Assembly: GCF_002005145.1 (NCBI RefSeq)
Contig: NZ_CP019698.1
Location: forward strand, 1,798,001 to 1,862,000
DNA length: 64,000 bases
Direction: 5' to 3'
Source of the DNA: Desulforamulus ferrireducens
GTDB taxonomy: Bacteria > Bacillota > Desulfotomaculia > Desulfotomaculales > Desulfotomaculaceae
The notes beneath the pieces were generated by a model. The model ran no database searches and was not told the origin of the DNA. It worked only from the letters and a program-made list of their open reading frames with translations. The position numbers and the translations under genes were made by a program. This document shows positions 15,241 through 45,628 of the stretch, one piece after another. The first letter of the stretch is position 1. Each line of letters starts with the position of its first letter.

Positions 15241-15357
15241 CCCATTCCGGTCAAAAAATTCTCCTTTCCACACAGGAGGAATGCCCGTTTCCAGACAATC
15301 CCTATCGGCCTGGGAACCATAATAAAAATATCGTAGGCTCCCAGGCTCGGAGTCCAT
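15241..15357 (-). ncRNA. Molybdenum/tungsten cofactor (Moco/Tuco) riboswitch
   Basis: On the minus strand the leader reads ACTCCGAGCCTGGGAGCC near its 5' end, a hairpin closed by CCTGGGA / TCCCAGG, then GGAAACGGGCATTCCTCC and a small GGAG-closed hairpin. The CTCCGAGCC and GAAACGGGCATTCCTCC blocks are the signature of the Moco RNA motif. Its place before a tungstate-binding protein favours the tungsten-cofactor form, but I cannot separate the two by eye. It is followed by a terminator. Confidence 0.85.
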
Positions 15358-15373
15358 ATTAAATTATCATTCC

Positions 15374-16564: not shown

Positions 16565-16640
16565 GATCCATTAGCTCAGTTGGTAGAGCACCTGACTTTT
16601 AATCAGGGTGTCCCGCGTTCGAGTCGCGGATGGATCACCA
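16565..16640 (+). tRNA. tRNA-Lys (anticodon TTT)
   Basis: A 76-base cloverleaf with acceptor GATCCAT / ATGGATC, anticodon stem CCTGA / TCAGG around CTTTTAA, T-loop GTTCGAGTC and encoded CCA. Confidence 0.95.
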
Positions 16641-16644
16641 TTGC

Positions 16645-16735
16645 GGAGTGGTACTCAAGTGGCTGAAGAGGGCGGTTTGCTAAACCGTTAGTGGTCGCAA
16701 GGCCAGCGCGGGTTCAAATCCCGCCCACTCCGCCA
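16645..16735 (+). tRNA. tRNA-Ser (anticodon GCT)
   Basis: A 91-base tRNA with acceptor GGAGTGG / CCACTCC, anticodon loop TTGCTAA, a long variable arm (class II) and encoded CCA. It lies four bases after tRNA-Lys. Confidence 0.95.
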
Positions 16736-16738
16736 GCT

Positions 16739-16812
16739 GCGGGTGTAGCTCAATGGTAGAGCCCTAGCCTTCCAAGCTAGTCGCGTGGGTTCGATTCCCA
16801 TCACCCGCTCCA
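16739..16812 (+). tRNA. tRNA-Gly (anticodon TCC)
   Basis: A 74-base tRNA with acceptor GCGGGTG / CACCCGC, anticodon loop CTTCCAA and encoded CCA, three bases after tRNA-Ser. It is the last of the co-transcribed trio. Confidence 0.95.
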
Positions 16813-17263: not shown

Positions 17264-18406
17264 ATGTTATATAACATTAAGTTAGACGGTTTTAAATCTA
17301 TAAAATCAATGAACATGAACTTAAAACCATTGAATGTACTGATTGGTGCCAATGGAGCAGGAAAATCTAATTTTATTTCTTTCTTTAAAATGCTCAATTA
17401 TGCCATGAGTGGTTATTTACAAGGTTATATTGGTGAGTCGGGTGGGGCAGATTCCTTACTTCATTACGGTTCCCGCTATACCCCCAAACTCACCGCCACT
17501 TTACACTTTGACACAAAATCAGGGGAGAATATCTATTACCTCTGTCTTACTAGTGCTGCCCAGGATACCCTAATTTTTACAGATGAAGCCATTTCCTTTA
17601 CTAAAAAGGGTACTGTAAAAGCACCCCTAGTTTCTCTTGGAGCTGGACACAAAGAATCTGAATTAATTAACCTGATTGAAGGAAAATCCCGGGCAAAAAC
17701 AACAAAGATAAATATAAAGACCGCTAAGGTTATTAAAGCTATCATGGAACGATGGAGAGTGTATCATTTCCATGACACCTCGGCACAAGCCAAGATTAAA
17801 AAAATTGGCTATATTCACGATAATTATTACCTAAGAAGTGATGCAGGTAACCTAGCCGCCTTTCTATATATGTTAAAAGAAACCAAGGTAGATTACTATA
17901 AACGAATTGTTTCAACAATCCGTTTAATGGCACCTTTTTTTGATGATTTTGTTTTACAACCATCAAGATACAATGAAAATAATATTTTATTAAACTGGAG
18001 AGAAAAAGATTCACCTCCAGAATCTATTTTTGGACCACACCAATTATCCGATGGTACTTTGAGGATGATGGCACTTGTAACACTGCTTTTGCAACCGGAC
18101 CTGCCAGAATTGATTATTGTTGATGAACCGGAGCTAGGATTACATCCCTATGCCATCAATGTTTTAGCCTCTTTATTAAAAACTGTCTCAGCTAAAACGC
18201 AAATCATTGTTTCTACTCAATCGGTTTCTCTGGTAGACCAACTGGACCCAGAAGATTTTATTGTAGTTGATAGGGAAATAACTGCAGAAGGATATAAGTC
18301 AGTTTTTAGGCGTTTGTCAAGAGATGATTTGCAAGAATGGTTGGATGAATATACACTTGGTCAACTATGGGAGAAGAACGTATTGGGAGGGAGACCTTCC
18401 AGATGA
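17264..18406 (+). CDS. AAA ATPase (AAA_21/SMC-like), probable defence protein
   Basis: A 380-residue ABC/SMC-type ATPase. It begins IKLDGFKSIKSMNMNL, has Walker A GANGAGKSN (about residue 29), signature LSDGTLRMMAL (about 263) and Walker B LIIVDEPELGLHP followed by the ISTQS-type sensor (IVSTQSVSLVDQL). There is no membrane span. Such ATPases pair with a TOPRIM-like or other nuclease subunit in antiphage systems (PARIS, AbiL and OLD/Rlo-type pairs). Here the partner is DUF4276, whose start overlaps this stop codon as ATGA. It lies next to tRNA genes, a usual site for insertions. Substrate or trigger unknown. Confidence 0.82.
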   Translation: MLYNIKLDGFKSIKSMNMNLKPLNVLIGANGAGKSNFISFFKMLNYAMSGYLQGYIGESGGADSLLHYGSRYTPKLTATLHFDTKSGENIYYLCLTSAAQDTLIFTDEAISFTKKGTVKAPLVSLGAGHKESELINLIEGKSRAKTTKINIKTAKVIKAIMERWRVYHFHDTSAQAKIKKIGYIHDNYYLRSDAGNLAAFLYMLKETKVDYYKRIVSTIRLMAPFFDDFVLQPSRYNENNILLNWREKDSPPESIFGPHQLSDGTLRMMALVTLLLQPDLPELIIVDEPELGLHPYAINVLASLLKTVSAKTQIIVSTQSVSLVDQLDPEDFIVVDREITAEGYKSVFRRLSRDDLQEWLDEYTLGQLWEKNVLGGRPSR

Positions 18407-19077
18407 TAAGAGTTAATATAATTGTTGAAGGACAAACTGAAGAAACGTTTGTTCGTGACGTTTTGGCACCTCATTTGGGGAATCTACAAATAGTTATTTC
18501 GGTAAGATGTGTAGAAACTGGCAGGAAGAACAATAAAATATTTCGTGGTGGAATGACAAGTTACCTAAAAGCCAAGAGAGATTTATTGAACTGGATTAAG
18601 CAGGACAGAAATGCTTATTTTACTACGATGTTTGATTTGTATCGGTTACCCGGAGATTTTCCAGGCATGAAAACAACTGAAAGGTTTGCAGACCCCTATC
18701 AAAGGGTTGCTTTTATCGAAAGGGAATTTGCCCTGGATATTAATGAAGAACACTTTATTCCTTATATTCAATTACATGAGTTTGAGGCACTACTACTAAC
18801 GGAACCTAGTAAATTCAATGTGTATTATTTTGACAGGTCTAAGGAAATTAAGATACTTGAACAATTGTGTGCAGAATACCAAACTCCTGAACATATAAAT
18901 GATGGTGAAGATACCGCACCATCGAAGAGAATTGCTAATCTAATTCCCGAATACACCACTGCGAAAGATGTGGCTGGGCCAATAATTGCCCAGGCCATTG
19001 GGTTAACTAAGTTGAGGTATGAATGCAGGCATTTTAATGAATGGTTAGAAAGACTGGAAAACTTAAGACTACTTTAA
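18403..19077 (+). CDS. DUF4276 protein, TOPRIM-like partner of the ATPase
   Basis: A 224-residue DUF4276 protein. IIVEGQTEETFVRDVLAPHL gives the acidic Glu expected for a TOPRIM fold near residue 9. TTMFDLYRLPGDFPG has the conserved Asp about 80 residues in, and IQLHEFEALL is the third family block. The TOPRIM relation is my inference from this pattern. The ATG overlaps the ATPase stop by four bases and has GGAGG 11 bases upstream; a longer frame from 18367 would overlap the ATPase further and is less likely. Together the two genes form a compact module likely to act in phage defence. Confidence 0.8.
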   Translation: MIRVNIIVEGQTEETFVRDVLAPHLGNLQIVISVRCVETGRKNNKIFRGGMTSYLKAKRDLLNWIKQDRNAYFTTMFDLYRLPGDFPGMKTTERFADPYQRVAFIEREFALDINEEHFIPYIQLHEFEALLLTEPSKFNVYYFDRSKEIKILEQLCAEYQTPEHINDGEDTAPSKRIANLIPEYTTAKDVAGPIIAQAIGLTKLRYECRHFNEWLERLENLRLL

Positions 19078-19216
19078 TATGGAATATAGATCTCGTAAGA
19101 CGGTGATGGAAAGCTTTGCGGAACTTATGGTTCTTGCTTTTTCTGATAGTCAATCAACTTCAATTATTATCAATTTATCCCACTTTCATGTATACTGCAT
19201 TTCGGTTCATTTAGTG

Positions 19217-19245
19217 TTGTCATTTGCCTTTGAGGATAATATAAT
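19217..19245 (+). promoter_or_regulatory. Sigma-A promoter of amtB-glnK
   Basis: TTGTCA, 17 bases, TATAAT: a near-consensus promoter. The predicted RNA starts about 19252, just before the first ANTAR-type hairpin, so both leader modules would be transcribed. Confidence 0.75.
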
Positions 19246-19256
19246 AGCAATATCCA

Positions 19257-19328
19257 GGGAACAATGATGTACCCAAACAGCCAATGAAGGCCCAAGGTTT
19301 GTATTAGGAACCTTGGGCCTTATTTATT
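19257..19328 (+). promoter_or_regulatory. ANTAR-type antitermination module 1 of the amtB leader
   Basis: Hairpin P1 (19257-19274): GGGaAC, loop AATGAT, GTaCCC. Five-base linker. Hairpin P2 (19280-19291): GCC, loop AATGAA, GGC. Both loops have A at position 1 and G at position 4. The 3' arm of P2 is part of the 5' arm of a 13-bp terminator stem (AAGGCCCAAGGTT / AACCTTGGGCCTT, 19287-19321) followed by a modest T-rich stretch. P2 and the terminator cannot form together, so a protein binding P1-P2 would allow read-through. Confidence 0.8.
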
Positions 19329-19329
19329 A

Positions 19330-19399
19330 CACAATGATGTGCATTTAGCAAAGGTGCTTGCTAAGGGTAATACCCTTAGAATCAAGCACCTTATTTTTT
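19330..19399 (+). promoter_or_regulatory. ANTAR-type antitermination module 2 of the amtB leader
   Basis: P1 (19330-19341): CAC, loop AATGAT, GTG. Five-base linker. P2 (19347-19358): AGC, loop AAAGGT, GCT. Loop positions 1 and 4 are again A and G. The 3' arm of P2 lies in the 5' arm of a second, stronger terminator (AAGGTGCTTG...CAAGCACCTT, 19351-19392) with an inner CTAAGGG / CCCTTAG stem and a run of six T. This is a complete second copy of the control unit two bases after module 1. Confidence 0.75.
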
Positions 19400-19461
19400 G
19401 GAGAAGCCTTCCGGAAGGGTACCCGAGGACTTCTCTGCCAACAAATTTGGGAGGGATTCAG

Positions 19462-21160
<1,699 letters not shown>

Positions 21161-28345: not shown

Positions 28346-28410
28346 TCTTTTACATTTACTGGACAATCCTCCAAGTAAATGGTATCATTTTACAATAATT
28401 GAATAATTCT

Positions 28411-28569
28411 AGTGTTAGGTACCTCTAGAGGTTTAATAAGGAATCGGGTGCAATTCCCGAGCGGTCCGGCCACTGTGAATGACTAGTTAGTTTCCGAAAT
28501 ACCACTGGATTTTTCTGGGAAGGTGGAAACTAATGTTATTAGTCTAAGTCAGGATACTTGCCTAACACT
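28411..28569 (+). ncRNA. Cobalamin (B12) riboswitch
   Basis: The outer P1 stem is AGTGTTAGG / CCTAACACT. Inside are GGGTGCAATTCCCGAGCGG, CCGGCCACTGTGA, CCACTGG, GGGAAGG and the B12 box AGTCAGGATACTTGCC. These match the adenosylcobalamin riboswitch core in order. It precedes cobalt uptake genes, which it would switch off when cobalamin is abundant. Confidence 0.95.
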
Positions 28570-28631
28570 CAACTGAACACCTCCCGAGGAGAGGCAAGCA
28601 GTTTAAGAAAAGAGGTTATCTATGCCCTGAT

Positions 28632-35704: not shown

Positions 35705-35981
35705 AGATAACTACATAAGCTATCGACATTGATGGAGGAAAGTAGATCAAACCCAACCTTCCAGGGAGAAGAAGTCGCGACTGAGAGCTTCTTTATGGTA
35801 TGGCTGATTGAAGTTCCCTCCGGAGTTGCTGCAGTGAAAGATTTTAGTAGCTTCAGCCGGGAGCCCGCCGTTAAAAGGGAGGAGGTATCGGATGTTTGTC
35901 CCGTACCGGTAAAGCAACTACACACTAGGGTGGTATAGCGAAATGATGCATTTCGTCCCTGGAGGATGAAATGCTTTTTTA
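35705..35981 (+). ncRNA. T-box leader 1 with terminator
   Basis: A full T-box leader. Stem I is closed by GGAGG / CCTCC and contains an AAAGTA (AGTA motif) opposite GAAGTTC. Long intervening helices follow, then the T-box AGGGTGGTATAGCG (from 35927) and a terminator GCATTTCGTCC / GGATGAAATGC with T6 (35948-35980). The TGGT bulge fits a tRNA with discriminator A. The specifier could be GTT (Val) or, one base on, TTC (Phe); I cannot decide. It would sense uncharged tRNA and control downstream transport genes. Confidence 0.85.
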
Positions 35982-36090
35982 TTACCGGCAGGAAGAAGTC
36001 CCGTACCTTTTGAGCTGGGCTATTAAGCCAATTTGGGTGGTACCGCGGAGATAACTCTTCGTCCCTTGTTGAGGGATGAAGAGTTTTTTT
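35982..36090 (+). ncRNA. Partial second T-box: antiterminator and terminator only
   Basis: A second, closer-to-consensus T-box, GGGTGGTACCGCG (36035-36047), followed by terminator AACTCTTCGTCCC / GGGATGAAGAGTT and T7. Only about 55 bases separate it from terminator 1, too few for a Stem I, so it probably lacks its own specifier. It repeats the GTCCCGTACC segment seen before T-box 1, suggesting partial duplication. Confidence 0.75.
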
Positions 36091-43253: not shown

Positions 43254-43322
43254 GGGATACAACGTGGTATCCCAATGTGGCAATGTGGCCCAGTACAGAT
43301 TATTTATCTGTCTGGGCTTTTT
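43254..43322 (+). promoter_or_regulatory. ANTAR-type antitermination module of the regulator's own leader
   Basis: P1 (43254-43273): GGGATAC, loop AACGTG, GTATCCC. Five-base linker. P2 (43279-43290): GGC, loop AATGTG, GCC. The 3' arm of P2 starts the terminator GCCCAG...CTGGGC (43288-43317) with inner ACAGAT / ATCTGT and a T5 run. This implies the regulator controls its own synthesis. Confidence 0.82.
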
Positions 43323-43343: not shown

Positions 43344-43931
43344 ATGGCCAATCCACGAATCCTAATTGTTGATACCGATTTTGCTTACCTGCAACAATTA
43401 AAATCAGTGTTAACCAGATTAGATTTTATGGTAGTGGGGGAAGCCTGTGACGGTCCCTCCGCCCTAAAATTAGTGCGAAACAGAGACCCGGATTTGCTAA
43501 TTACCCAGGATAAACTACCTGGCATTAGCGGAATTGAAATAGCACGAATTATGTATGAAGACAAACTGGGACCGGTTATTATCACCACCGATTACTTGGA
43601 GCAAGAATTACTGGTCAAGGCAAAGGAATTCAGGGTTTCTCAGATTCTGGTTAAACCTTTGGAAGATTATCACCTACTACCGGCGGTGGAATTAGCCCTC
43701 GGTAATTATCAGGAAATAATCAAGCTGGAGAAACAGATTAAAGATCTGAAAAATAACCTGGAAAGTAGAAAGTTAGTGGAAAAGGCCAAGGGTATTTTAA
43801 TGCAAACCATGCACTTAAATGAGGCAGAGGCCTTCCGTCGCATCCAGAAACAAAGTATGAATAAGCGGATGTCCATGCGGGCTGTGGCGGAAGCGGTGAT
43901 TATGGCACATTCCCTGCAAGATACCAAATAA
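43344..43931 (+). CDS. ANTAR-domain antitermination regulator with atypical receiver
   Basis: A 195-residue response-regulator-like protein. The receiver domain (1-120) begins RILIVDTDF and has Lys in ILVKPLE, but the phospho-acceptor position, four residues before the Pro of KLPG, is Gln55 with Asp one residue later (DLLITQDKLPG). A short coiled coil (125-140) joins to a C-terminal ANTAR RNA-binding domain (LVEKAKGILMQTMHLNEAEA, FRRIQKQSMNKRMSMRAVAE). No histidine kinase is near. Canonical phosphorylation is doubtful, so control may be by ligand or partner protein, as for AmiR. It is upstream of glnA and between genes that carry its probable RNA sites. Confidence 0.9.
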   Translation: MANPRILIVDTDFAYLQQLKSVLTRLDFMVVGEACDGPSALKLVRNRDPDLLITQDKLPGISGIEIARIMYEDKLGPVIITTDYLEQELLVKAKEFRVSQILVKPLEDYHLLPAVELALGNYQEIIKLEKQIKDLKNNLESRKLVEKAKGILMQTMHLNEAEAFRRIQKQSMNKRMSMRAVAEAVIMAHSLQDTK

Positions 43932-43950
43932 CTGTGGAACTGAATAATTA

Positions 43951-44030
43951 GGTACGAGGCTGTACCACCAAGGCAAGGGAGCCTTTTATGAAAGGAAGCA
44001 AGCGTGTCCTTTTGTAAAAGGCATTTTATA
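43951..44030 (+). promoter_or_regulatory. ANTAR-type antitermination module upstream of glnA
   Basis: P1 (43951-43966): GGTAC, loop GAGGCT, GTACC (G at position 1, G at 4). Five-base linker to P2 (43972-43983): GGC, loop AAGGGA, GCC, extended by AA / TT. The 3' arm starts a terminator GCCTTTTA...TAAAAGGC with an inner AAAGGA / TCCTTT helix; the T-run after it is interrupted by A. Confidence 0.72.
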
Positions 44031-45466: not shown

Positions 45467-45549
45467 AAAAACAACCTGGTATACATAATTCATATCATCT
45501 ATCTCTGGCTTTTCCTTGATCTGTTCTATATAATAGTAAACAAATATAC

Positions 45550-45628
45550 CAGCACAATGTCGTGCTGATTAACGGCAATGAAGCCTGCAACAGATAACAT
45601 GTTTGTTATCTGTCTGTCAGGCTTTTTT
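45550..45628 (+). promoter_or_regulatory. ANTAR-type antitermination module of the gltB leader
   Basis: P1 (45550-45567): CAGCAC, loop AATGTC, GTGCTG. Six-base linker. P2 (45574-45585): GGC, loop AATGAA, GCC. The 3' arm begins the terminator GCCTG..ACAGATAAC / GTTATCTGT..CAGGC followed by T7. A TATAAT at 45529-45534 (weak -35 TGGCTT, 17 bases upstream) would start RNA about 10 bases before P1. Confidence 0.82.

What the first reader, a model, noticed from the sequence alone, without database searches (positions are those of the whole stretch)
19257..19399. Two complete ANTAR-terminator modules in series upstream of amtB
Two P1-P2-terminator units follow one near-consensus promoter with two bases between them. 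Each has its own P1, five-base linker, P2 and terminator. Two gates in series would give a sharper response or lower leak than one. Tandem riboswitches are known; a tandem ANTAR leader is not something I recall.
Basis: seen in the sequence. Interest (0 to 1): 0.82.

Follow-up and report, generated by a model that had tools for sequence, protein, structure and literature searches.

The report
Two ANTAR RNA gates before amtB
The ammonium-transporter gene of this anaerobic bacterium is preceded by two complete protein-controlled RNA off-switches in a row; the arrangement is real, conserved in relatives and common at nitrogen genes of its whole order, so it is a recurring, little-described variant of a known switch rather than a one-off.

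Summary
Confirmed. Window 19257-19399 holds two P1-P2-terminator units in series, 5-nt linker in each, behind one TTGTCA-17-TATAAT promoter. A covariance model built without this genome still ranks them first and third in 64 kb. Shuffled windows gave no tandem pair. Each unit is conserved separately, with compensatory changes, in relatives.

The window also carries an ANTAR regulator beside glnA-gltB, with single units before the ANTAR gene, glnA and gltB. The genome's nifH leader is tandem too. Of 82 amtB leaders in the order, 39 hold at least two hexaloop-terminator units and 8 at least three; 0 of 410 shuffles had two.

Ramesh 2012 (PMC3369931) already reported ANTAR RNAs before ammonium transporters and 13 in six transcription units of one Desulfotomaculum. 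The kind is therefore known; serial stacking in one leader is a variant I found no paper describing.

Best mechanism: two independent antitermination gates, probably read by the same ANTAR protein(s), giving lower leak and a steeper response. A likely origin is fusion of two leaders around a lost glnK copy. Termination, binding and dose response are untested.

The parts
19190..19202 (+). Conserved DNA motif GTATACTGCATTT, exactly 37 bp upstream of the -10 (candidate activator operator of the nitrogen regulon)
   Evidence: same motif at the same spacing before gltB and nifH (the only three matches in this genome) and in relatives
19217..19245 (+). Promoter TTGTCA-17-TATAAT; start of transcription about 19252 (inferred)
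   Evidence: 11 of 12 matches; same -35/-10 in relatives
19257..19274 (+). Module 1 P1 hairpin, hexaloop AATGAT, A.A mismatch at third pair
19280..19291 (+). Module 1 P2 hairpin (antiterminator), hexaloop AATGAA; 3' arm shared with terminator 1
19287..19329 (+). Terminator 1 (14-bp stem) and U-rich tail
   Evidence: compensatory changes in relatives
19330..19341 (+). Module 2 P1 hairpin, hexaloop AATGAT
19347..19358 (+). Module 2 P2 hairpin (antiterminator), hexaloop AAAGGT; 3' arm shared with terminator 2
19351..19399 (+). Terminator 2 and U-tract
   Evidence: compensatory changes in relatives
19402..19435 (+). Further conserved hairpin with palindromic GGGUACCC in its loop, between terminator 2 and the ribosome-binding site
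   Evidence: no Rfam match above threshold
19462..20808 (+). amtB, ammonium transporter (PF00909)
20822..21160 (+). glnK-type PII gene downstream of amtB
43344..43931 (+). Receiver-ANTAR regulator gene (PF00072 + PF03861), paralogue A; candidate reader
43255..43318 (+). ANTAR unit in the leader of the ANTAR gene (autoregulation)
43950..44027 (+). ANTAR unit before glnA
   Evidence: 29.2 bits
45479..45491 (+). Same DNA motif before gltB, GTATACATAATTC
45550..45626 (+). ANTAR unit before gltB
   Evidence: 33.6 bits
43083..43144 (-). Possible ANTAR unit (P2 plus terminator, weak P1) before asnB
   Evidence: 18.0 bits

Best explanation
The amtB-glnK operon belongs to an ANTAR-controlled nitrogen regulon, and RNA polymerase must pass two independent ANTAR-controlled terminators in series. 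When the ANTAR regulator is inactive, P2 of each module is absorbed into its terminator and most transcripts end after about 70 or 140 nt. When it is active, the dimer binds the hexaloops, holds P2, blocks the base of the terminator stem and lets polymerase through; the next gate then repeats the decision. Probably the same ANTAR protein, or interchangeable paralogues, reads both gates, so leak multiplies and the dose response steepens ('pseudo-cooperative', as in tandem riboswitches). Shown here: anatomy, conservation, covariation, regulon context, single promoter by pattern. Inferred: termination, binding, antitermination, which paralogue acts, and the steeper response.
For: Both modules score high with a model built without this genome. 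Each is conserved as its own lineage in relatives, with compensatory pair changes in its terminator. P2 and the terminator stem share bases in both. An ANTAR gene lies in the window beside glnA and gltB, and another sits directly before the amtB leader in relatives G001, G004 and G009. Multi-unit amtB leaders also occur in genomes with a single ANTAR gene (G034, G055, G056, G057, G059, G060, G081), so one regulator can suffice. No promoter was found between the modules. The tandem nifH leader shows recurrence. The mechanism of single units is established for EutV (PMC3369931, PMC8934654).
Against: No RNA, binding or expression data. Terminator 1 has an interrupted U-tail (TTATTTATTA), so it may be leaky. 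P1 of module 1 has only two pairs before a mismatch. In the single-ANTAR genomes most units lack a clear P1, so they are imperfect analogues. The genome has three ANTAR paralogues, so two different readers are possible.
Confidence: 0.6

Rival explanations
1. Fused leaders without special tuning: the array is a by-product of operon rearrangement. Ancestrally one attenuator preceded a first glnK and others stood between glnK and amtB; loss of that glnK put them in one leader, and the serial order adds little.
For: In G005, G007 and G008 a glnK copy lies between the first unit and the following one. The middle unit of the triple leader in G001/G009 is homologous to the unit between glnK and amtB in G005/G007 (alignment scores 31 and 46 against a best of 14 in 500 shuffles).
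Against: Both modules have been kept with compensatory changes in G000, G002, G003 and G006. nifH leaders are also tandem with no gene between the units. Origin does not exclude function.
Confidence: 0.25
2. Two-input AND gate: the two modules are read by different ANTAR paralogues that carry different nitrogen signals.
For: The genome has three ANTAR paralogues with different receiver sites. The two module lineages differ in stem sequence and second loop.
Against: Single-ANTAR genomes also have multi-unit amtB leaders. P1 loops of both modules are identical here (AATGAT). Base-specific contact in EutV is limited to G4 (PMC8934654), so loops offer little discrimination.
Confidence: 0.15
3. Sponge: short leader RNAs titrate ANTAR protein away from other targets, like EutX/Rli55.
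For: Terminated leaders would still expose P1, and a single hexaloop can bind EutV (PMC8934654); EutX is a precedent (PMC5821096).
Against: Terminated RNAs lose P2 to the terminator. EutX carries a binding site without a terminator, unlike this leader.
Confidence: 0.04

Closest known systems
ANTAR-target antiterminator RNAs of nitrogen genes (Ramesh et al. 2012, PMC3369931), including Desulfotomaculum reducens and D. acetoxidans
   Same: Dual hairpin with A1/G4 hexaloops, terminator overlapping P2, ANTAR gene in the genome, nitrogen genes including ammonium transporters and PII; 13 RNAs in six transcription units in D. acetoxidans
   Different: The text does not describe two complete units stacked in one leader or test serial gating; its supplementary tables were not readable here
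eut locus of Enterococcus faecalis (EutV/EutW, EutX)
   Same: One ANTAR regulator controls several terminators along one locus
   Different: The four eut terminators stand before different genes; here two stand back to back before one gene, and no histidine kinase was seen beside the ANTAR genes
Tandem pseudo-cooperative riboswitches (TPP, c-di-GMP-I; PMC9481103)
   Same: Two or three complete sensor-terminator units in series before one gene
   Different: The ligand is a protein (ANTAR), not a small molecule bound by RNA

Membership tests
ANTAR-target antiterminator RNA (Ramesh 2012) | Two hairpins with at least 3-bp stems | tested here: met
   P2 of both modules and P1 of module 2 have 3 bp; P1 of module 1 has 2 bp + A.A + 3 bp, kept in relatives
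ANTAR-target antiterminator RNA (Ramesh 2012) | Hexaloops with A at position 1 and G at position 4 | tested here: met
   AATGAT, AATGAA, AATGAT, AAAGGT
ANTAR-target antiterminator RNA (Ramesh 2012) | Intrinsic terminator overlapping P2, correctly oriented | tested here: met
ANTAR-target antiterminator RNA (Ramesh 2012) | ANTAR protein encoded in the genome | tested here: met
   Three ANTAR genes, one in the window
ANTAR-target antiterminator RNA (Ramesh 2012) | ANTAR protein binds and prevents termination | not testable with these tools
   Needs binding and transcription assays
Tandem pseudo-cooperative leader (PMC9481103) | Two complete sensor plus expression-platform units before one gene, one promoter | tested here: met
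Tandem pseudo-cooperative leader (PMC9481103) | Both units respond to the same ligand | tested here: inconclusive
   Multi-unit leaders in single-ANTAR genomes support it; three paralogues in this genome leave it open
Tandem pseudo-cooperative leader (PMC9481103) | Steeper dose response | not testable with these tools
   Needs reporter assays

The most novel reading that the evidence does not exclude
Relay antitermination: in ANTAR arrays only the first unit needs a recruitment hairpin (P1); later units are single-hexaloop terminators served by the ANTAR dimer already parked upstream, making the array a processive antitermination track. In 39 multi-unit amtB leaders P1 was found in 30 first units but only 15 last units (relaxed test, p about 0.001, not corrected for relatedness). 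In this window both modules do have a P1, so here the idea would apply only as hand-off from module 1 to module 2.
Probability: 0.1. Interest if true: 0.75.

Novelty: new variant of a known kind. Interest (0 to 1): 0.5.

Why it matters
Serial protein-controlled attenuators would be the protein counterpart of tandem riboswitches. The natural set of one-, two- and three-unit leaders on the same gene in related bacteria makes it possible to test whether stacking sharpens control or simply records operon history. It also sharpens the picture of nitrogen control in Desulfotomaculum-type bacteria: one DNA motif at the promoter plus one to three ANTAR gates.

Tried and rejected
Chance inverted repeats: rejected by shuffles, hold-out model and conservation. 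Second promoter between the modules: none found. A known Rfam family: none above threshold for the leader. Recent duplication of one module: rejected, since the two lineages keep different stems across species. Pairing of GGGUACCC with P1 of module 1: rejected, the complementarity is not kept in G003 and GGGUACCC persists where module 1 is not in the amtB leader. The genome-contig scan with AmtB gave only distant relatives and was not used for leaders. Ramesh supplementary tables could not be opened (no look-ups allowed), so whether they list these exact tandem pairs is unknown.

Full report
What is there. The leader of amtB (19252-19461) contains, from 5' to 3': a near-consensus promoter (19217-19245), module 1 (P1 19257-19274, P2 19280-19291, terminator 19287-19329), module 2 (P1 19330-19341, P2 19347-19358, terminator 19351-19399), a further conserved hairpin with GGGUACCC in its loop (19402-19435), then the ribosome-binding site and amtB followed by a glnK-type PII gene. 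All four loops fit A1/G4. In both modules the 3' arm of P2 is the foot of the terminator stem, so P2 and terminator exclude one another.

More than chance. A strict search for P1 + P2 + overlapping terminator found four sites on the + strand and one weak one on the - strand; the four are amtB (two), the ANTAR gene and gltB. Shuffled windows gave 0.37 sites per 64 kb and no pair within 100 nt in 30 shuffles. A covariance model made only from other genomes scores the two amtB modules 34.3 and 32.9 bits, gltB 33.6, glnA 29.2 and the ANTAR gene 25.1, the five best hits in the window. Stem pairs covary across the 20 modules aligned (0 of 500 shuffles reach the covariation score; sliding the partners abolishes it); these sequences were chosen by the same motif, so this supports but does not independently prove the structure.

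Regulon. This genome has three ANTAR genes, all receiver-ANTAR proteins. Paralogue A (window 43344-43931) precedes glnA and gltB, and its own leader has an ANTAR unit. Paralogue B follows an alanine racemase gene; in relatives G001, G004 and G009 it is directly upstream of the amtB leader. Paralogue C precedes a second glnA. At the usual phosphorylation site A has Gln or His (Cys in one fragment), B has Asp and C has Glu, so activation by a histidine kinase is doubtful for A and C; the signal is unknown.

Relatives. The two-module leader is kept in G000, G002, G003 and G006. G001 and G009 have a third unit between the two. G004 has a full first and a P2-only second unit. Module 1 and module 2 are separate lineages, each with compensatory changes in its terminator. 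Over the order, 82 amtB leaders from 76 genomes were read: 76 leaders have at least one P2-terminator unit, 39 at least two, 8 at least three; 48 have at least one full unit and 15 at least two. In 410 shuffled leaders the numbers were 8 with one unit, 0 with two, 1 with one full unit, 0 with two. Thresholds were set by me on this material, so the counts are approximate. The nifH leader of this genome is tandem as well, and the same arrangement is seen in nifH leaders of its genus.

How the array arose. In G005, G007 and G008 an extra glnK copy sits between unit 1 and the next unit. The unit between glnK and amtB in G005 and G007 is clearly homologous to the middle unit of the triple leader in G001 and G009. 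The simplest reading is that attenuators that once preceded separate genes came together when that glnK was lost; the opposite, insertion of glnK into an array, is not excluded.

One reader or two. Seven genomes with a single detected ANTAR gene (six at least 99% complete, one 93%) have amtB leaders with at least two units, though many of those units lack a clear P1. This argues that stacking does not need two different ANTAR proteins, but does not prove it for this genome.

Position effect. In multi-unit leaders P1 is present in 28 of 39 first and 8 of 39 last units by the strict rule, 30 and 15 by a relaxed rule (p about 0.001, not corrected for relatedness). The EutV structure paper redefined the minimal site as one hexaloop and called P1 a recruitment hairpin (PMC8934654). 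A relay along the array is therefore conceivable, but the same paper found that lengthening the P1-P2 linker by 20 nt abolishes antitermination, which speaks against hand-off over 50-70 nt.

Literature. Ramesh et al. 2012 (PMC3369931) reported ANTAR RNAs before ammonium transporter and PII genes and 13 attenuation systems in six transcription units of D. acetoxidans. No held paper describes stacked complete ANTAR units in one leader; absence from this library is weak evidence. Tandem riboswitches of the same ligand are called pseudo-cooperative and give steeper responses (PMC9481103), the best model for what these gates would do.

Verdict. It remains a well-conserved, experimentally tractable variant that I did not find described.

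Noticed in passing
window 19190-19202 and 45479-45491; G000:C1:2064276-2064331: DNA motif GTRTACWNNATTY lies exactly 37 bp upstream of the -10 of amtB, gltB and nifH, the only three matches of motif plus spaced -10 in this 3.24-Mb genome; 26 matches in nine genus genomes against 4 for the reversed control pattern, most of them before ANTAR leaders. Looks like the operator of an unknown nitrogen activator.
   Followed up: partly
window 19402-19435: Hairpin with palindromic GGGUACCC loop between terminator 2 and the start codon, present in all nine family genomes checked (shortened to GGUACCC in G009) even where ANTAR units differ; not in Rfam; possible translational or dimerising element.
   Followed up: partly
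G000:C1:2064082-2064331 (L137): nifH leader with two ANTAR units in series; P2 loops begin with G instead of A (GAGGTC, GTTGAG), so the A1 rule is not absolute in these bacteria.
   Followed up: partly
window 43344-43931; L135; L136: Three ANTAR paralogues in the genus; the usual phospho-acceptor is Gln/His in A, Asp in B, Glu in C, and the reading frames listed around them show no obvious histidine kinase, so they may be activated otherwise, for example by PII or glutamine synthetase (inference).
   Followed up: partly
window 17264-19077: AAA ATPase plus DUF4276 gene pair matching PADLOC candidate defence system HEC-01, directly upstream of the amtB leader and behind a tRNA cluster at 16565-16809.
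   Followed up: partly
window 15245-15364 (-), 28400-28579 (+), 35720-36069 (+): Molybdenum cofactor/tungsten riboswitch, cobalamin riboswitch and T-box leader, all above Rfam thresholds.
   Followed up: no
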